From Nymphaea colorata (Eukaryota > Streptophyta > Magnoliopsida > Nymphaeales > Nymphaeaceae): a stretch of DNA of 64,000 nucleotides. The DNA lies in the NCBI RefSeq assembly GCF_008831285.2, contig NC_045138.2, positions 13,714,571 to 13,778,570 of the forward strand, given 5' to 3'. A program made the position numbers and the translations under genes. The notes under the pieces were generated by a model. It worked only from the letters and a program-made list of their open reading frames with translations, did no database searches and was not told where the DNA came from. Numbering within the stretch: position 1 is the stretch's first letter; each line of letters begins with the position of its first letter. Shown one piece after another: positions 2,687 to 28,276 of the stretch.

Positions 2687-2840
2687 GTGTTTGACACAAG
2701 TAACAAATTGTTACTATCCAATGAAACTACACAAAAAATTGGGCAGATTCATTGAACTCTGTAACTGAGGGTTTTATGAATCTGCCTAAATTTTGAAACT
2801 GAATCATTGGATAGTAACAATCTCTTATGAGTGCCAAAAG
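2687..2840. mobile_element. Small fold-back element (MITE-like)
   Basis: A 17-bp perfect inverted pair, TTGTTACTATCCAATGA at 2708-2724 and its complement at 2804-2820, encloses a second nested pair (GGGCAGATTCAT at 2741-2752 against ATGAATCTGCCT at 2776-2787). The outer ends GTGTTTGACAC and GTGCCAAA are also roughly complementary. The whole block folds into one long stem, as in non-autonomous DNA transposons. I could not define the exact ends or a target-site duplication. Confidence 0.65.
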
Positions 2841-4140: not shown

Positions 4141-4149
4141 ATTGATTGT

Positions 4150-5083: not shown

Positions 5084-5091
5084 GTTTGTTT

Positions 5092-5371
5092 TAATGGTGG
5101 CCGGCTCGGCCGGGCCTGATTGGGCTAGGAAAAACCAGGCCCAGGCCCGATAGGCCGGCTCGGGTCAGCTCAGCCCAACCTGGTCCAGTCCGTTAAGAAT
5201 AAAAAAATAATTTTTTTTTAATTTTTTTAATAATATATATTTATTATTAATAAATATATTTTATATTAAAAAATTATTTTATAGTTTTAAATGGGTCAGG
5301 CCGAGCTAGGGCCGAGACCGAGCTACCGGGCAGGGCTCACCGGCCCGGCCCAATGCCAATGCCCACCCTTA
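5092..5371 (-). mobile_element. hAT-type MITE, copy 2, with perfect 8-bp target-site duplication
   Basis: The element begins TAATGGTGG and ends ATGCCCACCCTTA. It is flanked on both sides by the identical octamer GTTTGTTT (5084-5091 and 5372-5379). An 8-bp duplication with short inverted ends is the mark of hAT-superfamily insertion. GC-rich arms surround an A/T-only core that runs in the opposite orientation to copies 1, 3 and 4. It is 280 bp long and non-coding. It lies about 290 bp upstream of the TATA box of Root_cap copy A. Confidence 0.88.
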
Positions 5372-5661
5372 GTTTGTTTTTAATGAAATTTTTGATTGGA
5401 ATAAAAATATGGACGATATTCAAGAGGGTCCTGCTGGCTTGCAAAAAAGGCCATAAAAGTTCTAAAAGAAGATAGAAACTCGAAGGCTGATGTCTAGTCA
5501 GAAATTTAATGATCATACGGGCAGAAATTCTCTGGTCAACGGAATAACAAGCAATAACTTTGCATGGCAATGATTTCCAAGTGGGTAGCACGTCAATGTG
5601 GTAAGGCGCACGTTCCTGAATCTGAGTGAGGGCAATCCAGCGGTGCTGCTACTCCAACCAC

Positions 5662-5669
5662 TATAAATA
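5662..5669 (+). promoter_or_regulatory. TATA box of Root_cap copy A
   Basis: TATAAATA lies about 105 bases upstream of the ATG at 5774. The equivalent element occurs before copies B (13280) and C (19967), and in mutated form at D (27952), so the position is supported by comparison of duplicates. Confidence 0.75.
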
Positions 5670-5773
5670 GATGAATGGCCCTTAACAGTAGGACACATCC
5701 AATTGGAAGCCATTGCCCCCCACTAGCCAATTGAGAGAGTTCGATCTTCCATCCTTTTTTGTTGCAAAAGAAT

Positions 5774-7002
5774 ATGGCTTCCGCAAACGTCCCGGTTGCT
5801 CGAGGCCTCCTCCTCCTCCTCCTGCTCGCCTTTGTTTTTGTCGAGATCGCATCTGCAACTCCACCATCTTCTACGCGCAAGAGAGTGAGGTGCAGGCGCC
5901 ACGAACCTCAATTTGGGAAATGCTACATGGTCGAGCAGATCTGCCCTGACGCTTGCCCCACCACCTGCAAAATGAACTGCCACACCAGTCTGCCGTAAGT
6001 CGGTCATTATTAGTTCAGTATCAAAGGAAGCTATTCACATACGTTGTGTTGGTCTCTCTCTGTGCAGGTTGCGACGAGCCTGGCGCTGTGTGCGATGATC
6101 CCCGCTTCATCGGAGGGGATGGCATCACCTTCTACTTCCACGGCAAGAAAGACAAGGACTTCTGCTTGGTGTCCGACACCAACCTCCACATCAACGGCCA
6201 CTTCATCGGCAAGAGGGGGGACGGCATGAACCGAGACTTCACATGGGTCCAGTCCATCGGAATCCTCTTTGACGAACACAGGCTCTTCATTGGTGCCAAG
6301 AAGGTGAACCCCCATTGAGCAACTCTTATCTAGCTAGCTCTACGTTCAAAATGAACGGATAGCCCGCCATGCACATAACTACATAAGCTGCATGGCGCTG
6401 CGGAAAAGCAGAAAATTAACTTGCTTATATTGGACGATTATATTGACGCAGGTCGCTGAATGGGATGATGCGGTTGATCAGCTGGCCATTGCCTTCGACG
6501 GCGAGCCCGTCTTCCTCCCCGCCGCGGAGAACGCTCAGTGGTCGAGTAGTGCCGCTGCATCTGCTCTCACCATCTCTCTCGCTTAGACGCACCGGCGAAT
6601 GAGGTCGTGGTCGAGGCACCCAACAAGTTCAGGATCATGGTCAAGGTGGTTCCTATCGGCAAGGAGGAATCTAGGGTCCACGGCTACGGCATCACCAACG
6701 ACGACTGCTTGGCTCACGACTTAGGCTTCAGGTTCTACTCCCTTACCGGCAGAGTCAATGGCGTGCTGGGCCAAACCTATGCGGACAACTACAAGAGCAG
6801 AGCTAAGATTGGTCTGAAGATGCCGGTGCTGGGAGGTGACCGCGAGTTCCTCTCTTCGGGACTCTTCGCCACCGACTGTGCCGCCGCAAGGTTCACGGGC
6901 ACGGCGTCCGGCTTGACCGTCGAGGGAGCCGTTCGTCCGGGCGAAGACGACTTGGTGTGCAAAACCGGGTTCAATGGCCGTGGCATGATCTGCAAGAAGT
7001 GA
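5774..7002 (+). pseudogene. Root_cap / LEA-related secreted protein, copy A (frameshifted)
   Basis: Three exons match copies B and C: exon 1 from 5774 (signal peptide with a poly-Leu core, then a Cys-rich segment CPDACPTTCKMNC), exon 2 at 6068-6303 (236 nt, the same length as in B and C) and exon 3 at 6452-7002. Exon 3 carries the Root_cap domain (Pfam PF06830 type). It is broken: relative to B and C a dinucleotide gain in the run ATCTCTCTCGC (about 6572-6580) shifts the frame and gives a TAG at 6584-6586, while the rest of the domain stays open in another frame (6607-7002). Exon 1 is also about 8 nt shorter before its best donor (GTAAGT at 5995), which would join exon 2 out of frame; only a weak donor at 5988 would restore phase. 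Downstream coding sequence is still well conserved, so the loss looks recent, or the break is an assembly error. Confidence 0.85.
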
Positions 7003-10000
7003 GCTCAAGAATGTCTTTCAAAACCTGCACCCCTTAGCTTATTTTTCTTTATCTTCACATTGAATAAAAAAAAAGGCAGGTGAAAGCAGAATTCTTGGGC
7101 TGTTGTGGGTCTGAATTATTCCAGTCACCTTTTCCCGTCATATGTTTAATCAATAAATTGACTTCTTTTCTTTCTTTCCTTTTTTCACCCAAAATTGTTA
7201 TGGACTTGCGAGGTTTTTTGTTCTTTTTTTTTCCAACTCATCGCATCCAAGCCCCGAATCTCTTTCCGTCGGCTAACTCAATCATAGTTAACCTAATTAA
7301 TATTATTAAATAAATGACAATTTAATATATATGTATATAATATATATACATATATTATATAAGTGATTGAACAGCTTTCACCCAATGTCTTGAATTATTA
7401 GAACGATTTAACAATTTGTATAATTTGTCCCACGGTCTATTTCAGAGGCATCACAATTAATAGTTCACATTGAATCATGAATTAACGGCACAAAGAACAT
7501 ACTTTTATTTTCAGAAAGCATGGTCTCGAACACTATTCTAATTAACAGAAAAACGATGTTAATTTATACATATTTAGCAAACTAGTTGTTTTTATGCCTA
7601 AGGTACACAATGTAGACGAGAACTTGAGGAACATGTTATTTAGTTGACATACTCTTAAAAGAAAAAATAATAGATTGTGACATCCCATCATCTGAGACAA
7701 TCAACAATCTCTTTCCATCTCTGTTTATTGAATGTTCAACTATAAGCATTTAAGAAGCTATCGTAAATATGAATCATACGGGCCCAATTATTGCTTATTA
7801 ATGCTGCCCAAATAAAATGTTAAGGGGACCCAAATTAAGTTGGTTTCGTAGGGGGCCGATATTGTTTAAACAGCTAACTTTCGGCCGATACGGCCCATAT
7901 CGACCAATATACCGATAATATATTGTGGTTAATTTTTTATGCCTGAACAAAAAAACACTTAAAATTTTGCCAATAAGTCGATGGTGTATGTTCTAATTTA
8001 AGTAATTAGCCTACTCTCATTGGTTGGGTTTATGACCAACTTTTGAGAGATTGAAATGCAGAAAAGACTTCTTGATTGATCCAATTTTGCTGAGTGAAGG
8101 AGATGATTACGATCCATAGCTTGGAAAAGGGCCCAAGCCCCCTTGAATAATTGTTCTAATTTCTCATCTAGAGAAAATATGTGTCCGCCGAAGGATTTAA
8201 TTAATTGTTTTTATGTTGTTTTCGAATCCGTTACAAAACGAGTCGCATGGATGTACGTGCGAGCCAATAAATCAAGCTTTTATTCAAAGATTTATAAATG
8301 CAAGATTTCAAGTTTGAGCAATATCTTTCTCCGCCTAAGGTTAAGACGGAAAGACAAAATTAATGTCGGCCCACACAAAATCTCAAGGTTCTTTGCATCT
8401 TCTCTTGGCACAAATTTATGTTTTGACGAAATTGATTCAGATGATATGGTTGTCTGTAGAGATCATGGTTAACAAACTTATGACTTGGACTTCGATCGAC
8501 TGAAGATTAGGAGACCGGGTTAAAAAGTTGACTCGGTTGGATTAGGCCTGAATTTTATAGTGTTTTTCTTTTTTTTTAAAAAAAATGAAGCATATACATA
8601 TATATAAGTCTGTCATGACTTTATATTTGATTTTTGATCAGCTAGTTAAACTGAATAACATGTAATATAAGTATTTTTATATTTAATAAATTTTATGATA
8701 TTTCACAATTCGAAAAATAACAAACTTTTAGATTCGGGAATGTGCGACAAAAAACAAAAACTTGTAATTAGTTGACGTTCAGGAGCATGGGAGGATGTAA
8801 CAGAGTAATCTCCAAATTGTAGCATAAACAGCATACTGTAAATCTTAACATAATTGATAACGTACACATTCTCCACAAATTGTTAAGAATTAAGAAACGG
8901 ATCCTATAGAAGTGCTGTGAATCACCGGTATAGACTAGGTTTCGGATAGTACATCAAAACCTTTTGCACAGGTCGTAAAGCTCTTTTTTCTTAAATTGTT
9001 TAGTTAATGCAGATGAATTTCGGCGAATGGATGTATGTAACTATGTAGGTTGTTATGCATTTCATAAATGTTGGTAGGGAAGAACTCGAGAAGCCAATGC
9101 TTATGGCACGCCTTCATTATTGATCGGCGTTAGTCTAAACATATGATTAATTATTGACTGCTTTCCTTTTTTGGATTTACTGATATATATATATATATAT
9201 GTTTCTTTAATCTTTTAATTATTAAAATAAAGTTGTATGAGAACTTGTGGATTAATTTGGATTAGAGATTATGCATGGCTTAGTCAATGATGTCAATTTC
9301 ATTTCATGCATTTCAGAAGCATCCTTGCTTTCGCTGTTACATTCTAGAACATCTTCTGCACTGGATCGCCCTCAAGCAGCTATCAAATGTCAGGCAATGA
9401 ACTTCTGAGAAAGGTTCTTGTTGAACTGCTTGTTTTGAAAGTCCAGTTGTTATTTATTATCTGTCAAATGTTATGCGTTTTTTAATTGTTTTTCCTAATT
9501 TATTTTCTTTGGATGATGAGGCCACGAATTTTTTTGGAGGATTACACTGTGCAAAAGTAAAACTCAAAGAAACAAACAGAAGTGCGTGCAAGAAGCGGGC
9601 TTCAACTCTTGTTGAGGCCCTTGAAAAATCAATGGCCGAGGGGTGCTAATGCTTAAATAAGAAAATGAAGCTAGGGGACGATGAATGTAAATAAGCAATT
9701 TGTGCAGGCAGTTATCCACATACTCATGCATTTGCCTCCCTCACTAGTCACTGGTTCATATAATATCTCTTATTGATGATCCATTTGATTTTGTGACTAA
9801 AGAAAAAGACTATCGTCTAAGCGTGACCATTTTCTCATAATTTCAGAATGAACCTTGTATGTTTTATCGGTGCAGAGCTCACTTTTGCTGAACATTATAG
9901 GTTTCACATCCTTCTTCATAACATTGCTGGATGGTTTTTACCAAATTAATTATTTCAAAAAAAAGTTAATAAAATGTAAAAAAAAAACATCTTGTAAATA

Positions 10001-11090
10001 ACCACTCTTCTCTTAGCTGATGAAATAAGATATTTTTGCTAGTTTAGATAAAAAAAATGATAATAATGATTTCTATCAGAGGGCAACACTCCCAGAAAAT
10101 GTCCCAGCTTAAAAGCTAAGTACCTACTTGTTGGCTTGTATAATTTGTCAAGTGATGATTCGTCATTTGCCTAAACACTAAGCTGTTTCTTTGTAATTTT
10201 TCAATTATTTTAAGATGAAGAGTGGCGATTCCGAGACATGTTGATGAGGGAGGTGCATGTGTGGCCGTCATTATGATCAAGCAACATGTAACTCCTACAA
10301 ACGCAAAGCCAAGCCGCATCTATCGAGAGCATCTTTTGCTTCTCATTCCTTCCTTGGCACCAGCTTCTCTTGTCTAAATGCTCAATCATGACCACGAACA
10401 TCAATCGAGTCTCACACCAGACTCGCTCTTGTTAAAATAGAAAAGAAAATACACGCAAAGAGAGGAAGCCAAGATGATACGGATCTCATCAACCCCCCTT
10501 CTTTTTGCGGCAAAGATCTTACCATTTCCCAAGGACCCAGATTCAAATCTATTTGGTTAAAATAGGTTCAGAATGAAATGTGAATCTAATGAATTTCCTA
10601 TATATGCGATGCGATCGGACCCTGATGACATGCAGAAATCTAGATTCAGTTTTCCATTCTACGCACCGAAAATTCACATCAAAACCTAGTAGCCTAAGCA
10701 ATGCCATATTAGATCAGATGGATACAGCAATGGTTTCATAGGATTCGAACTGCTTACATCCCTTGGGAACACAAACTAAAATACAGCTCCTTAAATGACC
10801 ACATCCAATATAATCTGTATTGGTATGTAATCATGTGTTGACATTCTGAGCATACTGACCAGAGATCAAAGAGTTGTGTGCGAGAAGGGACACATATTGG
10901 AGTGTGAAGAAAGAAGAGAATAATGTTTGAAGAAGGATGAGTTGGGAAAAACTTTACGTGTAGATAATAAAGCATTCGGAAAAGGCATAAGAAGAAAGCA
11001 AACTGCAGCACAAATTAATCTTTTTTGCTTTTTTTGTTTTGGCACTTATAATAAGAGTGGAAGACGAATAATAGGCACTTAGAAGTGGAA
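7003..11090. other. Long AT-rich intergenic region, no supported gene
   Basis: It begins with the 3' flank of copy A. The rest is AT-rich with many stops. A 109-codon frame at 8143-8472 (+) shows no recognisable domain and has no promoter evidence. There is a (TA)n run at 9181-9200. I see no RNA gene and no delimitable transposon. Confidence 0.45.
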
Positions 11091-12473
11091 TGTTCTTCTC
11101 AAACCATGTAACCTAATGCAAGTTCGCTTTAGCACTTGTACAAGTAACCTTTCCTTAAAGCTCAGACAACATGAAAATACAGTCGTTTTCCACTCAGTTC
11201 TTCGAAGCTTTAAAAAAAATACAATTCCATGAGGTACATGGTTTCAAGTTTAAGTATGCTGACCACGTATGATTTGCTTCCATTAATGAGAGAAGGGAAC
11301 GGTGGACTTTAATTTCACGCTATTTATTTTCGGTCTCATGAAAGAAGTGGGCTCATGTTCAACAGTACGTTAATCCACATATATCCAAGTCGTGAATATT
11401 CTTGCACAATCTAAGCCGTTGAAGTATTCATTTTAAGGAAAATAAAAGTTGAATAAATTTGGATTTTATTATTTTTGGATCTGTCTTTTACCTGTCATTC
11501 AAAAAGGACCACTACTTTCTATCATTCTCTTAAATGTCAAATTAAAAAAAAAAAACATTAGATAATAAGACTATCAGAATGCATGTGATTTCGTCATAGA
11601 CAGTAATACTAAGGAAAATACTGATAACGTTTTATGTTTCTCCAATTAATGGAACTTCATATCAGAACTTTGTTTGGCAGTTTTTCTGAAACATATATAG
11701 CTCTTAATAAAGAACTAATCACAAACTAAAGTGTGTCTTTGTCAAATTAGAGGGAAATGCATTAGTATTCTTTTAGTCAAAACCGCGTGAAAACAAGTAA
11801 GGTTGCATGTTACGACACTTGCAAGTTAAGACAGAAAAAAACTAAGATTCCAATCCGTTCAAACCTATTTAAAACGGTGAAAGTCTGTTTGGGCGTGAAA
11901 CAGAGACGGCTGGTGTAAGCAGCTAGATTCGCTCTTATCTCTGTCAGGCAGTGAGAGACTAATATGAAAATTGAAAAGAAAATTGTATTCATTAGCGTAC
12001 GTTAAGCTATTGTGCAGTCTCACCCTGGTTGGATTTAGGGTTTATAGAAAACTAAGTAGGCTCGTTTAAGATCTGACCTGTTTATACATTATCTACCAGA
12101 TTTATATCATAGCCGAAACCCGAATGAACTTATGTAAGGTAACAAATTTTTAGAACCTAGTCCGAAAAGTACAGGTTCTAATAAAGGTCGGTCAGGAACT
12201 TGCTCGGTCACAACACTGATAAAACTAAATCAGGTTTTAGTAGCTTCTCTAATCATGTATGATTTTTCTACAGATTTTTTATTAAAGGTTCAAATTTGGC
12301 AGCCTGTAAACTTTCTAAGTCTTTTCTTAAGGTGCGTTTTCATTTTCCTACATTTTTGACTTTAGGATAGATTCCCATGGTCAATTTGTCGATAGACAAG
12401 TGGGTCTTGATTAATTAGCTTGAAAGAAAAGAAGTGCCAGCAATCTGATTAGCTTTTCCTTTATTAATTATAG

Positions 12474-12614
12474 AGGGTTGGCAAACGAGTCGAGTACGAG
12501 CTTTGCTGGGACAGCTCGTCTCGGGCATGTGCCAAGCAATATATATGAGTTGAGTCGAGTCTAGTCAAGCTGACTGAGCTAGAGCTCAACTCGGCTCATC
12601 ATGTGCAGCCCTAT
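12474..12614. mobile_element. Candidate small MITE inside the copy-B upstream segment
   Basis: GAGGGTTGGCAAACGAGTCGAG at the left and CTCGGCTCATCATGTGCAGCCC at the right are imperfect inverted ends around a segment rich in GAGCTC/GAGTCGAG words. I did not find the segment at the matching point of the D copy. No target-site duplication could be read, so the boundaries are tentative. Confidence 0.45.
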
Positions 12615-13279
12615 TTGCAATGTCTCTCATAAAATAAATTAGTTATAGTTAATCTGGGATCAGAGGTTCGTTCTGCATAAACAGCAGCATCCTAAAATGT
12701 AAAACAACTCACAAGAAGAAATACAAATGTTCCTCAGGCTTTACAGTTAAGTTATTCCATTAAGCATCCCGCTAGGGCTAGCTAGCTAGATTCTGTGTTT
12801 GTCCTAGATAGTAGGAAAATTAGTTTTTCCACTATTTGAGCAGTGCAGAACGGTGAAGTGACAGTGAGTCCCTTTGAACCCCCCACTTGAGCAAGAGGAG
12901 GAAGGCTAGCCCAGTCCTACTCGATCACGCTTCGTCGAACCTTCACTTGGGCAAACAGAAACAAACCAGAAGGAGATTTTGAACACACGACCAGCAGCCT
13001 ACTAGCCAGGCCAGCTCCATCCTTATCTGTGCTTACCTCTTACGGTTATGATGTTATATTTTTATATTACGCCACTCACAAAGTCAAAACTGTTAGAAAA
13101 TAGTAACAATAATGATAATAATAATAGTAATAGTCGTAATGGTTATGATCCTCCACGGCTTTGACCACCTGACACAACGCAAAATCTATGGAAAGTCAGA
13201 TAGCCCAGCCAGACATGCCGTGTTTTAATGATGTGCAATCCCATGTGAGCAGGGTGCTTCAATTCTACACTTGGAGTAC

Positions 13280-13286
13280 TATAAAG
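13280..13286 (+). promoter_or_regulatory. TATA box of Root_cap copy B
   Basis: TATAAAG lies about 118 bases before the ATG at 13404, just after the conserved upstream block GTGCTTCAATTCTACAC shared with copies C and D. Confidence 0.75.
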
Positions 13287-13403
13287 TAAACAGACCCACA
13301 AGCTTCAACCATGCAACACACCGCATCCCCAACCCATTCGCTTGAAAGGGACCAAAGCATCTAACCACAGATATCCTCTCTTCCTGTTCGATTTTCAAGA
13401 AAC

Positions 13404-14222
13404 ATGGCTTCCACTAAGCCGTGGTCTGCTCCTTTGATCTTCCTTCTCCCGCTCCTCTGCTTAGAGTTGGCCGCTGCAACTGTAGTCATAAAGCCAGACA
13501 AGAACGTCACTTTGCCCAAAATTGTGAAGTGCACGGTTAAGCAGTACAAACTTTGCTACTCCATCCCTTTAAGCTGCCCCATTGCCTGCCCCAAAACTTG
13601 CAAAGTGGATTGCACAATCTGCAAGGCTGTTTGCGGTAACTATCCTTACTGCCCTAATTTTCTTCATAAAAAAATCCATTACTTTGGCTGGCGCCCCAAG
13701 TGAGACCAGACCCATCATCGTTCACAAAATCTGGTCTCATGCTCTTTATTTTTCCCCATATGGTCGTCTGCACTTCTATACAGTTCCTGAGTAGCCGACG
13801 CTCTGTTTTACACCTTACCCATGCACCTGACGACTTGACCCTTACTTTTGTGGTTTTCAATGGGTTGAAAAAGATTAGATAAGCCCAACCTAAACGAGGA
13901 ACGTCTGACATGCACTTTACTCGACCATTAGTTGATGTGTTCCTAATATTAATTCCCTTTATCTGATCTGCAGATTGCGATAGGCCTGGTGCAGTGTGCG
14001 AGGATCCGCGTTTCGTGGGTGGGGATGGAATCACCTTCTACTTCCACGGCAAGAAGGACAAGGACTTCTGCTTGGTCACTGACACCAACCTCCACATCAA
14101 TGGCCACTTCATTGGCAGGAGAGGCGATGGCATGAAACGCGACTTCACTTGGGTTCAATCGATTGGAGTCCTCTTCGGCACTCACAAACTCTTCGTTGGT
14201 GCCAAGAAGGTATACACCATTC

Positions 14223-14253
<31 letters not shown>

Positions 14254-14904
14254 CTTCAAGTGATCATGGAGGTTCATGAGTTCAATGGATAGTACTTGAA
14301 GGCATTTCCGAACTTGATGAAGCCATGTTATGTCATCCTGATAAGTTAGTGACAACTATAGGTCGCTCGATGGGACGACGCGGTTGATCAACTGGTCATT
14401 GGTTTCGACGGCGAGCCCCTCTCACTTCCTACCACAGAGAACGCCGAGTGGACGGCCGCCGACTCTTCCCTCACCATCACTCGCTCCGGCTCAACCACCA
14501 ATGAAGTAGTGCTGGAGGCACCCAACAACTTCAGGATCGCGGCCAAGGTGGTTTACATCACCAAGCAGGACTCTAAGGTCCATCGCTACGGCATCCCCGA
14601 CGACAATTGCTTCGCTCACCTGGACTTGGCCTTCAGGTTCTACTCTCTCACTGGCAGCGTCAACGGCGTGCTGGGCCAGACCTATGCGGATAACTACAAG
14701 AGCCGAGCCAAGATTGGCCTGAAGATGCCCGTCTTGGGCGGCGATCGCGAGTTTTCCTCGTCCGGACTTTTCACCACCGACTGCGCTGTGGCAAGGTTCA
14801 AGGGAGTCGAGCCCAGCAGTGTGGAGGGTGCGATACTGGAGAATGATGGGGATTTGAAGTGCAAGACTGGCTTCGATGGCCGCGGCATGATCTGCAAGAA
14901 GTGA
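13404..14904 (+). CDS. Root_cap / LEA-related secreted protein, copy B
   Basis: Exons are 13404-13635, 13974-14209 and 14362-14904, all GT-AG, in phase, giving 336 residues. The start MASTKPWSAP opens a signal peptide (hydrophobic core LIFLLPLLCLELAAA, cleavage near residue 25). Exon 1 continues with a Cys-rich segment (CPIACPKTCKVDC, then CKAVC). Exon 2 begins CDRPGAVCEDPRF and holds GGDGITFYFHGKKDKDFC. Exon 3 holds the Root_cap domain (PF06830 type), with FAHLDLAFRFYSLTG and VNGVLGQTY, and ends GRGMICKK. Family members are known from root caps and as LEA-related Arabidopsis proteins; their biochemical role is unknown, and secretion to the wall or mucilage is inferred from the signal peptide. 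The TATA box is at 13280. Intron 2 contains a CT microsatellite. The gene faces its paralogue C, and homology continues past both stop codons. Confidence 0.92.
14226..14253 (+). repeat. (CT)n microsatellite in intron 2 of copy B
   Basis: An uninterrupted CT run sits within the 152-nt intron 2. The matching 100-nt intron of copy C has only a short interrupted run, which explains much of the length difference between the two introns. Confidence 0.9.
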
Positions 14905-15239
14905 AAAGATTATCACCTTCAAATAGCTGGTTGTTGAGCAGTCCTTTCAATAATGTGTTTCTCGATCGTGTTTTGGTTTACCCATGTCATGTGGAAATAA
15001 ACAGGAAAGGGATAATAAGGCGCCGAGGGAACACCTCTGCCGTTTCTTTCCTGCTTGAATGTGTGTTGGATTTCTTTGTTTTTCCTTCGACTGTTTTTTC
15101 GTTGTCAAAAGATTTGGCTGCTGCTTCTGTGCTTAGTGATTGATCTACACTTGGGTTTTCAATGAAACAAAGGACTGTTCGACTTATATGCTGACTTTCA
15201 ACCTATAGAGTTTGATGACTGTAGCAATTGTACGCCAAA

Positions 15240-18130: not shown

Positions 18131-18449
18131 CATACGTAATTGTTTTATATAATCTTCAAATTCATTAGATTGGAAGACAAGCTATAAGTCGAACAGCCCT
18201 CTGTTCCTGTGAAACCCAAAGTGGGGAGAGTCCACAGAAGCTGCACTCTGATCTTTTTGACAACAAACCAACGGTTGGAAAAGAAAAATTAAAGAAGACG
18301 AAGGAAACACACAGACAATCAGGAAAGGCGCCATAGGAGTTTCCCCGGCGGCATTCTCCCCCCTTCCTGTTTATTTCGACATGCAAGAACCAAAGCAAAC
18401 ACGTTATCCAAAGGACTGCTTTACTTTAGCTATCGGATGGTGATTTTCT

Positions 18450-19893
18450 TCACTTCTTGCAGATCATGCCACGGCCATTGAAGCCAGTCTTGCACTTCAA
18501 ATCCCCATCATCGCTCACTACCGCACCCTCCACGCTGCTCGGCACGACTCCCCTGAACCTCGCCACGGCGCAGTCGGTGGTGAAGAGTCCCGACGACGCG
18601 AACTCGCGATCGCCGCCCAAGACAGGCATCTTCAGGCCAATCTTGGCTCGGCTCTCGTAGTTATCCGCGTAGGTCTGGCCCAGCACGCCGCTCACGCTGC
18701 CAGTGAGAGCGTAGAACCTGAAGCCCAAATCGAGGTGAGCGAAGCAGTCGTCGTCTCTGATGCCGTAGCGATGGACCATGGAGTCCTGCTTGGTGATGGG
18801 AACCACCTTGGCCGCGATCTTGAAGTTGTTGGGTGCCTGCAACACCACTTCATTGGTGGTTGAGCCGGAGCGAGTGATGGTGAGGGAAGAGTCGGCGGCC
18901 GTCCATTCGGCGTTCTCTGTGATGGCAAGAGAGACGGGCTCGCCGTCGAATGCAATGGCCAGTTGATCAACCGCATCGTCCCATTGAGCGACCTGTAATT
19001 ATCAGTATCAGATACAAACCTGAACCTCCTTGATCACTTGAAGTGGGGAGAGAGATCAGAGAGAGGTAGAAAGGAAGGAGAATGGTGTATACCTTCTTGG
19101 CGCCAAGGAAGAGTTTGTGAGTGCCGAAGAGGACGCCAATGGATTGAACCCAAGTGAAGTCGCGCTTCATGCCATCGCCTCTCCTGCCGATGAAGTGGCC
19201 GTTGATGTGGAGGTTGGTATCGGTGACCAAGCAGAAGTCCTTGTCCTTCTTGCCGTGGAAGTAGAAGGTGATGCCATCACCACCCACGAATTGGGGATCA
19301 TTGCAGATGGCTCCAGGCTTATTACAATCTGCAGATCAGGTGAAGCGAATCATTGGGCCAATGTTTCTGAAATAATAATACATGTTCCTGTTCTGTTGTT
19401 CGACAACGGGCTAATAATATTCTGATCTCTTGCATCCCATCGAAAAGTGAAAACCTCAAACGCCGGAAAAACAAATCCTCTCGTTTTAACTTTTAGAACT
19501 GCGTAGAGCTGATGAGTGTAAGAGGAAAATAAAAATCATGTGACCATTGTTTCCTGAAATTTGCTGTCGAAGTGTGGCATCGGAGTAGTTAATTAATTTT
19601 CCAAAAAAAAAAAGGAAGGAAACGGGAACGGACAGTTACTTACGGCAAACAGGCTTGCATATTTCACAATCTACTTTGCAAGATCTGGGGCAGGCAGTGG
19701 GGCAGGTGAAAGGGATCCAGTAGCAAGTCGGGAACTTCTTATTCCTGCACCTCACAGTCTTGGGCACCTTCCCTTCTGGGTCTTCAACTTTCGGCTCCAC
19801 ATCATCTGCGTTTGCAGCTGCGAACTCTAAGCTGACAGAGCAAAGGAGCAGGAGAAGGATGAGTGGCGCAGCCCAGGTCTTAGTCGAGGCCAT
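18450..19893 (-). CDS. Root_cap / LEA-related secreted protein, copy C
   Basis: Exons on the minus strand are 19893-19644, 19328-19093 and 18992-18450, GT-AG, in phase, giving 342 residues. I chose the ATG at 19891-19893 (MASTKTWAAP) over an upstream in-frame ATG because it matches the start of copy B and begins a standard signal peptide (LILLLLLCSVSLEFAAA). The mature N-terminus has an acidic stretch (DDVEPKVEDPEGK) absent from B, then the Cys-rich segment CPTACPRSCKVDC and CKPVC. Exon 2 (236 nt) and exon 3 (543 nt) have exactly the lengths seen in B. Exon 3 carries the Root_cap domain with FAHLDLGFRFYALTG and ends GRGMICKK. The biochemical role of the family is unknown; secretion is inferred. 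The copy is inverted relative to A and B and shares upstream and downstream flanks with B. Confidence 0.92.
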
Positions 19894-19959
19894 GTTTCCT
19901 GAAATAAGCAATGAGTTGGTTGGGGATGCGGTGTGATGAAGTCCCAAAGCTTGTGGGTC

Positions 19960-19967
19960 TATTTATA
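19960..19967 (-). promoter_or_regulatory. TATA box of Root_cap copy C
   Basis: On the minus strand the sequence reads TCACTATAAATAGACCC, about 70 bases before the ATG at 19893. The same surrounding words (AATCACTAyAAATAGAC) recur at the orphan promoter near 27947. Confidence 0.8.
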
Positions 19968-22335
19968 GTGATTGAGGTGTAGAATCGAAGCACCCAACCC
20001 ATGGGTTTGCACCTCAATGAAACGACATACCTGTCTCCGGGAGATACTAAAAAAATAGAGAGAAAAAAAAAACAAGTGCCTAGATTCTGTTGTTGATCAA
20101 TGAAGTTTTATTAGTCCAGAACATGCCAAAACCGTGGGCGATCTATAACTATTCTTCTTATCATTATCATTGCATGTTTTTTTTAAAGCATGCAATCTGA
20201 GGAGACACTCAGAAAAAAAGAAAATCTACCATTACTGAGGAGGGAAAACGTCAGCAAAAAAGTTAAAACCGTCAATTATACATATACTGACTTCCTTCTG
20301 TTGTTATATCTAACCGTGCACCTTCTCTTCACAGGTCTTGTTTCAAAGATGAGTGTTAAAAGTCACTCACTCAGTCTTCGGATGGAAGGAAGCAACCATG
20401 ATTGTGTCTTTGACGGTACGCGGTTCGACTCCCTTGAGCGTTGGCCTTTGCTTAATGCTAAGGCGACTATAAGACCTTGAAATGGGGTCCTAGTCTTGGG
20501 GTTTTACACCGCCAGCTATTCCAGTGCTGTTTTCTGAAGTTGCTAAACTTAAATATCCGATTTTGTCGCAAAAAGATTTTGAAACAATGAAATGTTAGAA
20601 GCCGCCCCATTCAATATATATTGAATCAGTTTTAAAACCGGCAGGAGTGATCCAACTAAGACTATTACGTGTAGAGTTTGACCATTTAGGTCACATCAAT
20701 ATGTTCGTGATATTTTATTTTCTAAAAAATTAAAAAATAATTTTTAGTTCATCATCACTCCATATCATAATTTGGTTCGTAGTTGAAAGTGACTTTAAAA
20801 ACCAGATTCATGTTGAATTTGGATTGAGAATTTAAGAGTTAGATTCGGACATGGTATAGAGTCTATAGACTTCCCTTGGTTTCCATTTGAATATGAAACC
20901 GAATATGAATATATGAACATCTGATCATCATGATCAAATCAAATATGATAAAAGGCATAGTTGATGAATCCAATCCATTGACATCTCAATGTAGAGCTAA
21001 GTAAGGACCATTCAAAAGGCATAGTTGATGAATCCAATCCATTGATATCTCAATGTAGAGCTAAGTAAGGACCATTCAAAAGGCATAGTTGATGAATCCA
21101 ATCCATTGATACCTCAATGTAGAGCTAAGTAAGGACCATTCACGAGTTTTCTAGATTTTAGGTCGCGGCTGTGCTCCAATTCTCTCCCACATTAATTGTC
21201 GTAGTTTTTTGCGAGACGAAGAAAACGTACATTATTTCATCAAAATGACTTCAATTAAATTTAGCACATTCGTTAATTGCTTTACGACGCAACCAGCAAC
21301 ACAAATCAGATAATTCTTTTAAATGATCAATCTATCTCGGCGTTACTGTGACCAGTTCAACACAATTTTCATTAGCTTTGAAGACATAAGGTTCCAGTGA
21401 TCTTCCTCGGGAAGTGGGAGTGGTGATGACAGGACTTTTCAGTTAAGTCAACTACATATAATAAAACACCGACGGTATGCCAAGTAAAGCTAATCAGATC
21501 AGATTGCTGGCACTTCATTTTTCTTTTTGTTTTCCGCTAGATCGAGAATATTATCAGCATGGAAATCCGTCACAAAGTTAACAAGTAGGAAAATGAACAC
21601 GCGCCTTGAGAAAAATTCACCACAACTTTAGACTGCCATTTTTTAATCTGTTACAATGTGACCCATTCCTGCAATCTTCCCTTTTCTTCCTCTGTTTTCA
21701 ATGGTGTTCTGCTTCTATAGAGATGTGAACTTTTGTTGCTTTGAGGAATAGAAAACATTATCAGCAGTTTCTTTTTTAAAGATATTACCTTCTGTCACTT
21801 TCACCGTCATAGACTCTTCTTTCAGTGTTTTTATGTTTCTCTTTACTTCAGATTGTTATTTGACATTTTTCATGAAAGGTACGGTCTTCTTTTTTTAACC
21901 AAATAAAAAAAATGAAAAGAAGAAGTCATTTTTTCTTTTTCGAAACATGGCCCATAGACCCCAAAAAAAAATCAGGAAAGAAATAGCATGCAATCTTTGT
22001 TTTTCCTTAAGGAGGATATTTCAACGGCTTAGATTGTCCATGAATCGTATCTTGGATACCGATTACTATGTTAAACATAAGACGCGTGGACTTCTTTCAC
22101 GAGACGGCCAATAAATAGAGTGAATCTCTAGTAAATATTCGAACAAGGGGACGGAATTGTGACCAGCATACTTAAAACTTCAAACTATATACGTACCTTC
22201 CGAAATTGTATTTTTCTTTAAGCTTCAATGAACTTAATTAATGGAAGATGATATTTTCGGGTTCTCTAAGCTTTAAGGAAAGGTTACCTGTACCAAAGTT
22301 AAAGCGAACTTGCACTAAATAACATGATTTCAGAA
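19968..22335 (-). repeat. Segmental duplication unit upstream of copy C (inverted)
   Basis: This is the reverse-complement counterpart of 11095-13300. Matching blocks include the complement of AAGTTCGCTTTA-CCTTTCCTTAAAG at 22265-22325, the complement of GCCAGCAATCTGATC near 21495 and the promoter block near 19985. The three-unit 64-bp tandem repeat at 20951-21142 lies inside it and was not seen at the equivalent place of the B or D copies. Confidence 0.75.
20951..21142 (+). repeat. Three tandem 64-bp units
   Basis: Units start at 20951, 21015 and 21079 with AAAGGCATAGTTGATGAATC and end AAGGACCATTC. The period is exactly 64 and only a few substitutions separate units (CATTGACATCTC, CATTGATATCTC, CATTGATACCTC), so the amplification is recent. 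It has no coding capacity. Confidence 0.95.
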
Positions 22336-23417
22336 GTTCTTATTTAAATACACTTATTAGGCATCTTTAACTAAAAGCTCTAAGCAAACCCCCCACCCCC
22401 TCCACCCAACCAAATTTTTATTTTTATTTTTATTTTTTTTGAAAGAAACAATCTGTGCTGCTTTTGCTTTCTACTTGTGCTTCTTCTAAGTGCTTTATTA
22501 TTTACAAGTAAAGTTTCTTCCACCCCCTTCTCCTTCATCTTCTGCTTTCTTCACACCTCATGCGTCCCTTCGCCCACACGGCTCTCTCTGATTAATATGT
22601 TTGACTCCAACACGTGATTGGATACCAATATAAGATAAGGGATACATATTGGATCGTTTAAGGGATCATGTTTTGTTTTCTGTAAGGGATCCAAGTGCAT
22701 GCGATTGATATTGCCTACCCGGACGTTATTTGGTTTTCCAATTTGGATATATGACGGTACGCACAAGTTTGTGTCTCCAAGAGTTAGATGTCTTCGACAT
22801 CCACCTGAAAAGCTTTTAGAAATGTAGCATCTGCATTTCAGAATTTCGTCAACCATTCTGTATATACTCGTTCTAACCATTTATTAAATTATGACGCCTT
22901 GACAAAAAAAAAATCCCTCTAATTTTGATGTATTTACAAAAAAAAAACATACTTAATTTGGAACATTATAAGTAAGATTTAACGACGCAAAATCGCACTG
23001 CTTACAGTTTTTGACTAATAGCAACGGCCAGCCTTTTGGCAAGAGAATCGGAACTTTCACTATCTCAACTGCTATGCTAGTGGAGAGGATGAGTTATTAT
23101 TGACTTTTTAAGTAACGCAGGGACTGCTTGATAAAAGTCTTTTCTTGTACTCAGAATGAAAAACTTGAAATTAATCTATCTCTTACGTGTTCTATGGTGG
23201 CTTGAATTTCTCCATCGAGAGGAAGCAGTTGCAATATTTCTCCTACGTCGGAATGAATCATCTCGCGGCCGGACTTGTCTTTTCAGTCAAACTACACTTT
23301 TCAGTCAAAACTACACAATCCGGTGCTTAACTTCCATGTTAATTTGCTTTTTAAACCGGCTTCCATTTCCACGTTTAGATCATCCTATAATACCCAACCT
23401 AACTTACAGGAACAATT
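22336..23417. other. Intergenic, no supported gene
   Basis: T-rich and AT-rich spacer. Frames at 22551-22880 (-) and 23156-23467 (+) show no recognisable motif, and the latter runs into the MITE. Confidence 0.4.
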
Positions 23418-23708
23418 TAAGGGTGGGCATCGGCCCGGCCCTGCCCGATAGTCCGAGTCTCGGCTAGGCTCGGCCCATTTAAAATTAAAAAATAATTTTT
23501 TAATTATAAAATAAATTTTTAAATATAAAATATATTTATTAATAATAAATATATATTATTAAAACAACAAAAATTTAAAGAAAAATATTTTTTTAATTTA
23601 AACGGGCTGGACCGAGCTGACCCGGGCCGGCTTATCGGGCCCGGGCTTGATTTTTCCCAGTCCAAGCCTGGGCCCAATCGCTGGTCCAGCAGGACGCCCA
23701 GCCTTTTA
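23418..23708 (+). mobile_element. hAT-type MITE, copy 3
   Basis: The left end TAAGGGTGGGCATCGGCCCGG is the best-preserved terminus of the family here. The A/T-only core and the right arm (ACGGGCTGGACCGAGCTGACC) follow in the same order as copy 4. The right end GCCCAGCCTTTTA is degenerate. The flanking octamers do not match, so the target-site duplication is lost. Confidence 0.8.
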
Positions 23709-24199
23709 AGTTATCTAGCTTTTCAATTAATTTCTAATTTCATATGCCTCTTCCTTTCAATAAATTTATTACTTACCATCGACTTGTTTTAATAAAAAGA
23801 GGATAAGTCATTGTCTTCTCATGGGCATCATTTTCATGTTGAAATTATTTGTTCCTTTTTTGCTAACTAGGCAAAACTTCTCTTTTAGCAAAAGTCAGGA
23901 CGAAAGTATTGTTGGCAAAAAGTTTCCGAAACATGTTGCCAGCGTTGAGGCTGTCGAGTGCTTTTTGCAAACGCTATATGAAGACCAAGCTGTTGCTGGT
24001 GTGATCATATAAAATTAAATTAAATTACGATTGGGTTTAAATTCTATAGGCTTCGAACTATTTTATCTTTCTTTGCCGTAGCATGTATCATCCTAACTGA
24101 AGTTAAACCACGCTTCGTTTGTGATTTCAGGAACCCAATAAAGTTAAACCACTCTTTGGTACAATGGTTGGAGTAGGGGCTGGTAAGCGGTCAAATTCT
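23709..24199. other. Spacer between two MITE copies, no supported gene
   Basis: A 63-codon frame at 23821-24012 (+) has no recognisable motif. The stretch is notable only for separating two same-family, same-orientation elements by about 500 bp. Confidence 0.4.
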
Positions 24200-24207
24200 G
24201 TTTTGAT

Positions 24208-24529
24208 TAAGGATGGGCATCAGACCGGGCTGGCCCGAGCCGGCATGGTAAGGACTGGCCTAAGCCGGCATGGTAAGGGCCGGGAGCCCGACACGATAGT
24301 AGGGTCTCGGCTTGGACCGACCCATTTAAAATTAAAAAATAATTTTTTAATTATAAAATAATTTTTTAATATAAAATATATTTATTAATAATAAATATAT
24401 ATTATTAAAATAAAAAAATTAAAAAAATATTTTTTTATTCTTAACGAGCTAAATGGGCCGGGCTGACCCGGGCCGGCCTATCAGGGCCGGGCCAGGTTTT
24501 TTCCAAACCCGGCTCGATGCTCACCCTTA
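24208..24529 (+). mobile_element. hAT-type MITE, copy 4, with perfect 8-bp target-site duplication
   Basis: The element begins TAAGGATGGGCAT and ends ATGCTCACCCTTA (13-bp inverted ends with two mismatches). It is flanked by identical octamers GTTTTGAT at 24200-24207 and 24530-24537. It is 322 bp long. The left arm has a small internal duplication of CCGGCATGGTAAGG. It is non-coding. Confidence 0.92.
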
Positions 24530-24680
24530 GTTTTGATCTAAAAAAAAAAAAGCAATGCAATGGTGCATAGCAAGACACCTACCTCGTGGTACCAAAGCAA
24601 CCGAGAACCTTAAAAAAGGGCTTCGGTCTTCACTCGGACGATAGGATTAGCCTTTCGCTCATCCAAAGGGAAGTATTAGA

Positions 24681-24683
<3 letters not shown>

Positions 24684-24731
<48 letters not shown>
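24684..24731 (+). repeat. (TA)n microsatellite
   Basis: A pure TA dinucleotide run of about 24 units. Confidence 0.97.
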
Positions 24732-24734
<3 letters not shown>

Positions 24735-25974
24735 AACTCGAGATGGTCTATACTAGATACCACTAAATCTTTGTATTTATTGCACCAAATCTTCCGTGTT
24801 CAAGCAATCAAAACTGACTTAGCCAACTGTGGTTGATGGTTGGGGATATTTGCTTTGCTTTACATATTGTCAATACTGCGAAGCGCTTTGGGCTCACGAT
24901 AAACTTTCGTGCCAAAACTGTTTAAATTTTGGTAGTTTGACAGATTCATTATTGGCGACACAACGGGTTTCGTCGAAACTGAAGCAGCGATCCCACTGTC
25001 TGTCGCCACCACTGCTTCGTGTCGGGGCTAGTGATACAGTGAGTTCTCTTGCAAAGATAGCATCGGTGTTAATAGAAATATGTTGCAATGTGTCTTGTAG
25101 TGAGTAATACACGAATTATTTAAACAATCCAACTTATGGCTAATTAAAATTTTTAGGGTAAAAATAAAGAAAATCACAAAGTACACTCAAATTAAAAAAA
25201 AAATGCTGCATATGCAAAAATATGTTCCAAAAAAGGACAGCGCTTTATCTTCCTGTTATTTAACAAGTCAATCATAAAACCCAAAAGCAGTTTTCATGCT
25301 ACAGGCAGGGGCCATCGACCTCCTCAGATTCTCAAAAAATGAAAAATTTACATATAAATTTTGAAATTTTAGTTTAATCTATATAAAAATTAAAAAAAAA
25401 TTATCTTTCGGTTTCTATTAAAATTTTGAAACACCTCACCCTACTAATAATTCCAAGATAACTCTAGCTTTTTACCAAGTAGATCGAGGGCTTCCACCCA
25501 ACTTGATTATCCTTATAAGATTGAGGGTGGTAGGACACTCTTGAGACTTGTGATCCATTCCTCAGTCGCCCTTACAGGTGTGCATGTGAAACTATCTAAT
25601 TCTTGGCAGTACACACAACGACTCTTGAGCTTACGTCGCTTAAAACACAAAACACTCTTTATGTCGACCTTAGCCCAATCCATATATATTCCTTAAATCT
25701 ACACAGCCACCTCATGTATAATTGTGGGGTTGACATTCTACGAGAATGACCAGAGAGCGGAAATTTGGCAGCCAAGGAAGAGGACGAAGCGTGAAATTAA
25801 GAGCTAACTAATTAATGGAAATAAAATTAATGTTCCCTTCGTGTTCAATGATTAATTACGGCACGAAACATTTGATTGCCTTTAATTTCCGGAGCATCTT
25901 ATAGCTTTTACCTAAGACGTCTAATGTACATGTGCCTATATATGTTTAAAAAACATATAAAAAAACTCCTTCTC
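24732..25974. other. Intergenic, no supported gene
   Basis: Overlapping 92- and 72-codon frames on opposite strands at 24829-25112 show no family resemblance. The rest is AT-rich. Confidence 0.4.
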
Positions 25975-27922
25975 GGATCATGTTGCTTGCTTCCATATTG
26001 GTACAAGTGACCTTTCCTTAAACCTCAGAGAACGCGTGTTTCTAATCAGTGCTTCTGAAGCCTTAAAAGATAATGTCATTTGAGAATGGTATGTAGTTTC
26101 AAGTTAAAGTATTCTTTGATCTTGATTTGGTTCTATTGTTTGACTATCGCTAGTGAAAGAAAGCAGGGGTGGAGCCAGAATTTTCCGCAAGGACGGGTCA
26201 AATGGAGACTGGGTTTTGTGGATTGGATTTGGGTAGGGCCAAACTGAACTTATATTCAAAACATACATTGAGACAAAAAAATAAATAAATTTACTCATTT
26301 TTTAGCGGTCACATGAAGCCATGTTTGTTGGGCAATCAAAGCCGTTGAAAGATCCACCCCAGGCCTGAAGGAGAAACAAACTTCTTGTACCATTGGTTTT
26401 CAATCTAATAAATTGAAAAAAAGAAAAAAAAAATCTGCATGTGACATACTCCCAACTTAATATAGCTGAAAATCACGATTAAAATCCGCACTAACCCATT
26501 TATAATGGTGGAGAACTGTTGCTGCATGCATGATACTCATCAGTTGGTAGGTAGATTCGTTCGACTAGTCTGGTCAGCTCAACCAGGCCGTGACAGATGG
26601 CTAAAATAGAACATTGTTATAAGAAATCTATTGGGGTAGCGTTAAAATAGTGTAGTTTCAATCGGAGGGAACTGAGGTTGCATTAGATTTTTTTAAAAAA
26701 AAAACGGGAGCCTAGGATCCGACCTAATTATGCTTGCCCTGATTTATGTCTGAATCAAGCTCGAGTCAAATCGTGTAAGGTATGCTTTGAATTTTTAGAA
26801 GCTAAACGAGAAATTAAATGGTCTAATAAAACTAAACCTAGAACTAACACAATTGTCATACTGATAAAATCATTCAGGTTTTTTGTGTTGAAAGATTGTA
26901 GAGTAATTATATTTTTTATTGCAGATTTGGAAATGGGATGGCCTAACGTTGGGGTAAATTTTCCCGCCAGACTTTTCTTAAGGCGCTCGCTTTCGTACAT
27001 TCCGACTTTGTGAGAGATTCCCCTGGTATTGATTTCCAATCTGCTAGTCGGTCTAAAACCTGAAAAAATGAAGTGCCAGCAGTCTGATCACCTTTGCTTG
27101 AGTGCAGGATGATCGATCATCACTCTTTAATTAATTTAACTAAACAAACTTGTGATTAGCTTAATTTCCCAAGTTCCCAGACAGATCATTGAGGGCTAAT
27201 GCCTCCAAACTGAAAAAAAAAAAAACAAGTTGAATTGGTGAAAGGAACACAGTACTTAGACCCATTTCAAAACATCTGATCATTCTCAAGGGACGCGTGG
27301 CCTATGCTCGGTTAAAAAACAATTAGTGAGTGTCAAAAGTATAACTGAAGTAATCTTAAGATTTGCGATATTTTCTCTCATAAAAATTATCTTCACTTTG
27401 GGGGAAGATTGGTGCACAGCTGCGATCTAAAATCTGCAACGGTTCACGAGAAGCTATTCATCCAGGAAGCCAACACAGTTGACTATCCATCTCTTTACTG
27501 TTATATAAATGTTTCAAGACTATTTTCAGAGAGCTACCCAAGTGCCGCTCTTTCTGAATATATGCACAGAGACACCTTCTGTTTTTGTATTTAGCCATGC
27601 ATCTGCTTTTGCAGGTTCTGATTTAAAGGACCGATCGAGTCCTAAAATCAATCAATCAATCGTTTGAAGGTCCTCTTTTTTTCTGGAGTTTGAATTGGGT
27701 GTTCAATGTTTAACCTTCTTTCCTGAAGAAACTGCCTCACGGCTTGATCTTCATGTTATACATAGCATTTAGGATCAAATATAAAAGCTAGAGTTTGGGT
27801 AAATGTAATTACTGTAAAGTGAAGGACGCATGCGTCAAAAAACTTCCTTGGTCAACCAAATAAATTTAACACTATCTTTTTCCTCTATTATCTAGTACCT
27901 TTATTACAAATTACCCATGAGA
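25975..27922 (+). repeat. Segmental duplication unit upstream of the lost copy D
   Basis: Same-orientation counterpart of 11095-13300. It begins with GTACAAGTGACCTTTCCTTAAA near 26000 (B: GTACAAGTAACCTTTCCTTAAA at 11138). It continues through GACTTTTCTTAAGGCGC near 26970 (B: GTCTTTTCTTAAGGTGC near 12320) and GAAGTGCCAGCAGTCTGAT at 27068. It ends at the promoter relic. It is more diverged from B than C is. Confidence 0.75.
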
Positions 27923-28020
27923 AGAGTGCTTCAATTCTACACGCAAATCACTACAAATAGACACACAATCATTGGTACTACAGCCCTACAGATTCTCAAG
28001 TCACTGCTTATTTCCTGGAA
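27923..28020 (+). promoter_or_regulatory. Orphan Root_cap promoter and 5' UTR (copy D, coding region missing)
   Basis: GAGTGCTTCAATTCTACACGCAAATCACTACAAATAGACACACAA matches, base for base over most of its length, the promoter of copy C read on its own strand. The TATA box is mutated from TATAAATA to TACAAATA (27952-27959). The match resumes at CACTGCTTATTTCCTGGAA (C: CATTGCTTATTTCAGGAAA, directly before its ATG), then stops where the start codon should be. No signal peptide, Cys-rich segment or Root_cap sequence follows. The site therefore records a fourth gene whose body has been deleted or replaced. Confidence 0.8.
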
Positions 28021-28150
28021 GGGCTAAGGCGTTTTGGATGAAGATACTCCGTCGCATCACGCTCGCCAGTTTGAGCAGGTCCTGCGGACGTGATGCAGTA
28101 ATCTCTTACTCAGTATCTATCCGGACTTCAGATTATAATTATCAGCTCCC

Positions 28151-28276
28151 TTGAGTTATCCTGAAACCCTTTGCAATGGCCAAACTTTAAGATATATAGT
28201 TAATAGCCTTTTTCCCTAAGAAGAAGACGGAAGGCGGAGTGTCTTCTTCCTTGAGTTATCCTGAAACCCTTTGCAA
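28151..28276 (+). repeat. 26-bp exact direct repeat, 100 bp apart
   Basis: TTGAGTTATCCTGAAACCCT plus TTGCAA occurs at 28151-28176 and again, unchanged, at 28251-28276. The second copy overlaps the end of the left hairpin arm by two bases and runs into its loop. Confidence 0.95.

What the first reader, a model, noticed from the sequence alone, without database searches (positions are those of the whole stretch)
5774..28020. Local cluster of four Root_cap loci: one frameshifted, two intact, one reduced to its promoter
Copies A, B, C and the promoter-only site D share exon layout, promoter words and, for B, C and D, about 2 kb of upstream DNA. The window captures successive stages of duplication, inversion and loss in a little-studied plant-only secreted family.
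Basis: partly seen in the sequence, partly recalled or inferred. Interest (0 to 1): 0.7.

Follow-up and report, generated by a model that had tools for sequence, protein, structure and literature searches.

The report
Root_cap gene cluster with dying copies
A stretch of a plant chromosome holds two apparently intact copies of a plant secreted-protein gene beside broken, fragmentary and promoter-only copies, an ordinary but unusually legible case of genes being duplicated, overwritten by their relatives and lost.

Summary
A (+, 5774-7002), B (+, 13404-14904) and C (-, 19893-18450) are three-exon Root_cap (PF06830) genes. B and C are open and A is broken. D (about 25998-28027) is a Root_cap upstream region with no recognisable exon behind it. 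B, C and D share colinear upstream islands back to about -2.3 kb; A shares none of them.

Corrections and additions. A has two frame breaks, not one. A twin 216 kb away carries both breaks inside a 1.07-kb tract that is 99.7% identical, while the rest of the match differs at 7%: the mark of gene conversion or a patch copy. There is a fifth relic near 1640-2000. Two B-like copies 1.3 Mb away lack the Root_cap domain. D's 5'UTR is fused to a 184-bp piece that also occurs 33 kb to the left. On another contig one gene is followed by six truncated repeats.

The explanation is DNA-level duplication, inversion and probably conversion, followed by loss in some copies: birth-and-death evolution of a known family. 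The open point of most interest is whether the shared upstream islands are a duplicated enhancer. Interest is modest.

The parts
1640..2000 (-). decayed fragment of a Root_cap exon 3 (fifth relic), split by a GC-rich/AT-rich dispersed repeat at about 1737-1920
   Evidence: A exon 3 matches the unsplit counterparts at C1:15.02-15.06 Mb at about 70% (E 6e-11 to 2e-17); in the window itself 33 bp at 1956-1988 match at 79-85% (E 0.002 to 3e-6)
2352..10888 (.). block carrying A that is absent from two segments at C1:15.04 and 15.06 Mb, where window 2351 is followed after a few bases by window 10889
5774..5994 (+). copy A, exon 1; alignment to B and C shows 8 bases fewer just before the donor, so exon 2 is entered out of frame
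6068..6303 (+). copy A, exon 2
   Evidence: 82-86% aa identity to C and B
6452..7002 (+). copy A, exon 3; net +2 shift at a TC run near 6573-6580, stop at 6584; Root_cap domain follows in another frame
   Evidence: place of the shift by eye
5592..6663 (+). tract of A nearly identical to its twin A2 (L014, C1:13.503-13.504 Mb, minus strand), holding both frame breaks
   Evidence: 3 differences in 1072 aligned sites against 69 in 934 outside
10818..11448 (+). distal upstream block of B (-2.6 to -2.0 kb), shared with C and in part with D
   Evidence: the 9 genome matches are at B, C, D and C1:15.03-15.06 Mb
12318..12456 (+). mid upstream block of B with the word GAAGTGCCAGCA shared by B, C and D
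13222..13403 (+). proximal promoter and 5'UTR of B
13404..13635 (+). copy B exon 1
13974..14209 (+). copy B exon 2
14362..14904 (+). copy B exon 3 with the Root_cap domain (protein residues 247-302)
13952..15218 (+). stretch of B that aligns with C as one piece (80%), unlike most of intron 1 and of the upstream DNA; possible conversion tract
18450..18992 (-). copy C exon 3 with the Root_cap domain (protein residues 252-308)
19093..19328 (-). copy C exon 2
19644..19893 (-). copy C exon 1
19894..20023 (-). proximal promoter and 5'UTR of C
21497..21614 (-). mid upstream blocks of C
21995..22630 (-). distal upstream blocks of C
25998..26380 (+). distal upstream blocks of D (25998-26115 and 26325-26380), separated by a dispersed repeat at 26161-26303
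   Evidence: the repeat accounts for 38 of the 40 matches listed (40 of 161 candidates scored)
26969..27095 (+). mid upstream block of D
27399..27435 (+). short block of D shared with C (84%, E 4e-6) but not found in B
27913..28027 (+). proximal promoter and 5'UTR remnant of D; the TATA-box position reads CTACAAATAG
28028..28211 (+). piece joined to D's 5'UTR, 89% identical to C1:13,710,029-13,710,225 left of the window

Best explanation
A birth-and-death cluster of PF06830 (Root_cap) genes. Gene loci, introns and upstream DNA included, were copied as DNA segments (not through mRNA) within about 1.6 Mb of one contig, some in inverted orientation. B and C remain open and probably encode two similar secreted proteins. 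A lost its frame twice. It is a patchwork twin of a copy 216 kb away that has the same two breaks, because one was overwritten by the other (gene conversion) or both derive from a recently copied broken stretch. D lost its coding part through a rearrangement that joined its 5'UTR to a piece of DNA also found 33 kb to the left, leaving the promoter region. Shown: sequence anatomy, copy map, shared lesions in the low-divergence tract, colinear upstream islands. Inferred: direction and timing of the copying, conversion as the mechanism, function of B and C.
For: Gene models, open frames and lesions. Introns are kept in the copies long enough to show them (A, A2, B, C, the two 15-Mb copies, three-exon C11 copies), which speaks against retrocopies. 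B/C/D upstream colinearity with controls. A/A2 mosaic: 3/1072 vs 69/934 differences, both lesions inside. Further copies: 19 PF06830 matches, 8 on C1, 10 on C11, 1 on C2; two exon-3-deleted B-like copies at C1:15.02 and 15.05 Mb; trees that pair A with A2 and put B, C and the 15-Mb copies together. dN/dS of about 0.2 between A and B or C shows that A was long under constraint.
Against: No transcripts, reads or second assembly were available, so expression of B and C is untested and the assembly is taken on trust. The A/A2 tract could be a recent patch duplication rather than conversion. For B and C the conversion signal is only moderate: synonymous differences 22/54 in exon 1 vs 39/181 in exons 2-3, Fisher P 0.0075; but exon 1 also evolves faster on the A branch (B-C differences against A-only differences 55:48 in exon 1 and 74:111 in exons 2-3). 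D's longer branch (96 changes vs 58 and 40) is expected if D is dead, but also if D is simply the outgroup. A's place relative to the C11 copies is unresolved.
Confidence: 0.86

Rival explanations
1. A is not a pseudogene: it makes a shorter or re-framed protein by using other splice sites.
For: An in-phase GT lies seven bases before the strong donor of A exon 1 (by eye on the sequence); A exons 2 and 3 show dN/dS of about 0.2 against B and C.
Against: Even with that donor the exon 3 shift stops translation at 6584, before the Root_cap domain. Between A and A2 the last part of exon 3 has 6 amino-acid-changing and 4 silent substitutions and one 3-base indel, which suggests weak constraint but is a small sample.
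Confidence: 0.08
2. D is a live regulatory or transcribed element (promoter of a non-coding or chimeric transcript), not a relic.
For: Upstream words are kept exactly in B, C and D (ACCTTTCCTTAAA, AAGCCGTTGAA, GAAGTGCCAGCA), and GTGCTTCAATTCTACAC in B and D with one change in C, although much of the DNA between them has diverged.
Against: TATA-box position altered and the longest of three branches (96 changes), a dispersed repeat inserted in it, and the first ATG after the junction opens only 38 codons.
Confidence: 0.1
3. The upstream similarity of B, C and D reflects a transposable element that landed beside each gene.
For: Dispersed repeats do sit in D's upstream region (26161-26303, and one further match of 26766-26906 on C13), and GC/AT repeats are common in the area.
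Against: The B distal block gave only 9 genome matches, at B, C, D and C1:15.03-15.06 Mb (that search skips very common words). At B, C and D the blocks lie in the same order at similar distances.
Confidence: 0.04
4. The arrangement is an assembly artefact.
For: Reads were not available; two 8.7-kb stretches at C1:15.04/15.06 Mb are 99.3% identical, so near-identical duplicated sequence exists nearby.
Against: Window copies differ by 10-30%, with different introns, flanks and insertions.
Confidence: 0.03

Closest known systems
Root_cap family PF06830 / 'DPH domain' proteins (maize root-cap genes, Arabidopsis MDK4-20)
   Same: B and C carry the Pfam domain over its cut-off; the conserved region is much larger than the 57-residue model and begins at DPR (A, B) or DPQ (C), close to the DPH domain of PMC10796529 (section 20 and passages read). 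That ZmRCP-1 and MDK4-20 (PMC4812645, passages) belong to PF06830 is inferred through Matsuyama 1999, cited in both papers
   Different: Copies of this clade have a second intron between the codons AKK and V that 4 of 4 more distant copies in the same genome lack; expression in the root cap is not tested
Birth-and-death multigene clusters with gene conversion (general plant gene-family evolution; recalled)
   Same: Tandem and inverted copies, pseudogenes, conversion-like mosaics, array expansion elsewhere
   Different: Nothing categorical; the promoter-only copy and two lesions shared through a conversion-like patch make the process unusually visible

Membership tests
Root_cap (PF06830) | match to the Pfam model over its gathering score | tested here: met
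   B 91 bits, C 90 bits, cut-off 27; A's domain scores 94.6 bits in the six-frame search (C1:13721294)
Root_cap (PF06830) | larger conserved DPH domain, about 280 residues, beginning DPH or DPR and ending with the Root_cap domain (definition of PMC10796529) | tested here: inconclusive
   exons 2-3 of B and C align over 258 codons at 88% aa identity; the stretch starts at DPR in B but DPQ in C and is about 250 residues long
Root_cap (PF06830) | beta-sandwich fold | tested here: inconclusive
   AlphaFold2 on exon 3 of B and C gave mean pLDDT 29.6; no PDB sequence relative
Root_cap (PF06830) | signal peptide / secretion | not tested
   hydrophobic N-terminus visible; no predictor on hand
Root_cap (PF06830) | restricted to streptophytes | tested here: inconclusive
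   no relative confirmed among 232 pattern hits in prokaryote genomes and 67 in viral contigs; 0 of 14 control genomes; close relatives only
Root_cap (PF06830) | expression in root cap cells | not testable with these tools
   no expression data

The most novel reading that the evidence does not exclude
The islands shared by B, C and D (about -2.3, -2.0, -1.0 and -0.1 kb) are a multi-part root-cap enhancer that is copied with the gene and outlives its coding part, so D is an orphan enhancer-promoter that may still act on C, which lies head-to-head with it about 8 kb away. In addition, gene conversion spread a dead version of A to its twin (or the reverse).
Probability: 0.2. Interest if true: 0.5.

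Novelty: new member of a known kind. Interest (0 to 1): 0.3.

Why it matters
Root_cap proteins are numerous and have had little attention (PMC10796529, section 20). One window shows open, doubly broken, fragmentary and promoter-only copies, with conversion-like patches, so it is a handy worked case of how such clusters turn over. The islands kept across B, C and D in otherwise diverged upstream DNA are concrete candidates for control elements of these genes; promoters named ZmRCP-1 and MDK4-20 are already used for root-tip expression (PMC4812645, passages). Beyond that the cluster is ordinary gene-family evolution.

Tried and rejected
Structure: AlphaFold2 on the exon-3 translations of B and C failed (pLDDT 29.6), so no fold search was made. 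The spliced proteins were not sent, because they are not readable letter for letter from the DNA, which the tool asks for. A guess that the domain resembles von Willebrand D domains was not tested beyond a word search in one paper (0 occurrences).

Relatives: no PDB relative; no confirmed relative among 232 pattern hits in prokaryote genomes or 67 in viral contigs. No plant genome other than the window's own was on hand, so no cross-species dating was possible. Absolute ages are not given: the genome's size (407.8 Mb) is close to the 409 Mb printed for the water lily Nymphaea colorata (PMC7015852, passages read), but counts differ (783 contigs here, 804 scaffolds in print) and identity was not tested.

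Non-coding RNA: no Rfam match at gathering score in the window. Distal block as a hidden exon: the longest open stretch per frame is 27-77 codons in B and C, and 9 of 13 indels are not multiples of three, so it is taken as non-coding.

Conversion between B and C: suggestive only; not used as a main claim.

The DNA joined to D: reading frames left of the window and at the window's left end gave no Pfam match, so the source gene is unnamed.

Literature, seven searches: PF06830 (4 papers), root_cap domain / root cap protein / LEA (3), a five-term duplication query (0), Arabidopsis locus names (4), Nymphaea colorata genome (5), root cap / ZmRCP terms (6), MDK4-20 (6). No listed title concerns turnover of a Root_cap cluster. 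Opened: PMC10796529 (passages and section 20), PMC7015852 (passages), PMC4812645 (passages); all others were seen as listings only.
Full report
WHAT IS THERE. The window is C1:13,714,571-13,778,570 of a 407.8-Mb genome in 783 contigs. Three Root_cap genes share a three-exon layout. A (+): 5774-5994, 6068-6303, 6452-7002. B (+): 13404-13635, 13974-14209, 14362-14904. C (-): 19893-19644, 19328-19093, 18992-18450. B (336 aa) and C (342 aa) are open and match PF06830 at 91 and 90 bits against a cut-off of 27. They are 82% identical.

COPY A IS BROKEN TWICE. At the end of exon 1 the alignment with B and C has 8 bases fewer in A, and the strong donor then leads into exon 2 out of frame. In exon 3 a net +2 at a TC run is followed by a stop at 6584, with the rest of the domain open in another frame. 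Exons 2-3 of A show dN/dS of about 0.2 against B and C with dS about 0.69, so the loss is probably recent compared with the age of the copy.

A HAS A TWIN WITH THE SAME LESIONS. The PF06830 match at C1:13,502,973 (L014, 216 kb left of A, opposite strand) is here called A2. Window 5592-6663 and A2 differ at 3 of 1072 aligned sites with no indel; the rest of the 2-kb match differs at 69 of 934 sites with 10 indels, and the longest run between substitutions (614 bases) was not reached in 10,000 permutations. Further out, identity drops to 70-76%. Both frame breaks lie inside the near-identical tract. In the last part of exon 3, A and A2 differ by 6 amino-acid-changing and 4 silent substitutions and one 3-base indel. 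The simplest reading is that one broken copy overwrote the other by gene conversion; a recent patch duplication gives the same picture.

B, C AND D SHARE UPSTREAM ISLANDS. B vs C: 368 bp at 70% and 199 bp at 72% about 2.0-2.7 kb upstream, shorter mid blocks, and 113 bp at 74% at the promoter; over 12000-13200 the alignment is at 41%. D vs B or C: colinear blocks at about -2.0, -1.7, -1.0, -0.6 (C only) and -0.1 kb of D, with a few weak matches out of order at E 0.09-0.3. Across four three-way aligned blocks 243 columns are the same in all, 58, 40 and 96 are changed only in B, C and D, and 27 differ in all three. Eleven-base words shared by all three: 6, overlapping at three places, against 0 in each of 30 shuffled controls; for nine-base words 17 against a mean of 1.4. 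A shares none of this; its best hit is at the TATA box (E 0.09). The distal block of B gave 9 genome matches, at B, C, D and C1:15.027-15.064 Mb.

WHERE D ENDS. D's similarity to C runs into the 5'UTR. At 28028 D is joined to 184 bp that are 89% identical to C1:13,710,029-13,710,225, 33 kb to the left. No Root_cap exon was recognised after it in the window (tblastn), though a heavily decayed one could be missed. D also carries a dispersed repeat at 26161-26303, which makes up 38 of the 40 genome matches listed (40 of 161 candidates scored).

(a) A decayed exon-3 fragment at about 1640-2000 (-), split by a repeat; its unsplit counterparts at C1:15.02-15.06 Mb match A exon 3 at about 70%. (b) Two B-like copies at C1:15.024-15.026 and 15.051-15.052 Mb keep exons 1-2 but lack about 450 bp of exon 3, the Root_cap domain included, so the Pfam search did not list them. 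(c) In two near-identical segments at 15.04 and 15.06 Mb, window 2351 is followed after a few bases by window 10889: the 8.5-kb block with A is absent there, either because it came into the window's locus later or because it was lost there. (d) The Pfam search of the genome lists 19 matches: 8 on C1, 10 on C11, 1 on C2, three of them with a stop inside. On C11 at 392-401 kb one gene with exons 1-3 is followed by six head-to-tail units of about 1.195 kb that hold only the 3' part of exon 3, 94-98% identical to that gene. A DNA search with the B body (13952-15223) gave 34 matches, on C1, C2, C11, C15 and C743; those on C15 and C743 were not looked at further.

RELATIONSHIPS. A nucleotide tree of the last part of exon 3 (18 copies, some partial; the C2 copy was dropped as too short) pairs A with A2 (100%), sets B and C apart from the rest (89%), and has a C11 group (90%) and distant pairs at C1:0.5 and 24.3 Mb. 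A tree of exon 2 (14 copies; two short hits dropped) puts the two 15-Mb copies with B (86%). The trees disagree on whether A is nearer to B/C or to C11, and node support ranges from 34 to 100%. Copies of the A/B/C/C11 group long enough to show it have an intron between exons 2 and 3; 4 of 4 distant copies read through that position.

B AND C: ONE OR TWO HISTORIES? Synonymous distance is 0.60 in exon 1 and 0.255 in exons 2-3. Intron 1 hardly aligns (score 27 against a shuffled mean of 17.5; 1 of 500 shuffles reached it), while intron 2 (84 vs 15.0) and the 3' flank (115 vs 18.4) align well. That suggests a conversion tract from just before exon 2 to the 3' flank, but exon 1 also evolves faster on the A branch, so this stays a suggestion.

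HOW IT WORKS. B and C are probably expressed, secreted beta-sandwich proteins of the Root_cap/DPH kind. The fold is taken from PMC10796529, since the prediction here failed. Maize ZmRCP-1 and Arabidopsis MDK4-20 promoters give root-tip or root-specific expression (PMC4812645, passages seen); their link to PF06830 is inferred. The cluster evolves by DNA-level duplication, inversion, probably conversion, and loss. Function, expression and absolute ages were not tested.

VERDICT. The biology is birth-and-death evolution of a known family. The one lead beyond routine is the set of upstream islands kept in B, C and D.

Noticed in passing
window 28207-28353: A nearly perfect hairpin (minimum free energy -88 kcal/mol for 28190-28370, z -11.6) just beyond D, beginning about where the similarity to C1:13.710 Mb ends; a 30-base arm occurs exactly twice in the window, in opposite directions. 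It resembles a young inverted duplication, of a kind that can give small RNAs; genome copies could not be searched because the machine was busy.
   Followed up: partly
L012 (C11:392000-401999): Six head-to-tail 1.195-kb units holding only the 3' part of exon 3 with the Root_cap domain, downstream of a three-exon gene; could serve as alternative last exons or be dead.
   Followed up: partly
L021-L025 (C1:15020000-15069999): An 8.7-kb duplication at 99.3% identity containing copies of window 492-2351 and of the B distal block but no intact Root_cap exon: further distal-block-only sites.
   Followed up: partly
L001, L002, L003, L006 against A, A2, B, C and C11 copies: Intron 2 is present in one clade of this genome's Root_cap genes and absent from four distant copies; gain or loss cannot be told without other species.
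   Followed up: no
C15:3295141, C15:6059536, C743:662 (genome contigs): Exon-2-like matches at 74-75% to the B body without a PF06830 match on those contigs in the listing: further fragments or diverged genes.
   Followed up: no
window 1737-1920, 5120-5357, 23438-23665, 24286-24505: Four copies of a dispersed element with GC-rich ends and an AT-rich core, also frequent around C1:15.03-15.06 Mb.
   Followed up: no
window 53949-55553 (-): Cytochrome P450 gene in one uninterrupted frame of 534 codons (PF00067, E 1e-56).
   Followed up: no
window 20950-21142: Three 64-bp tandem units, 97-98% identical to the first, inside C's upstream region.
   Followed up: no
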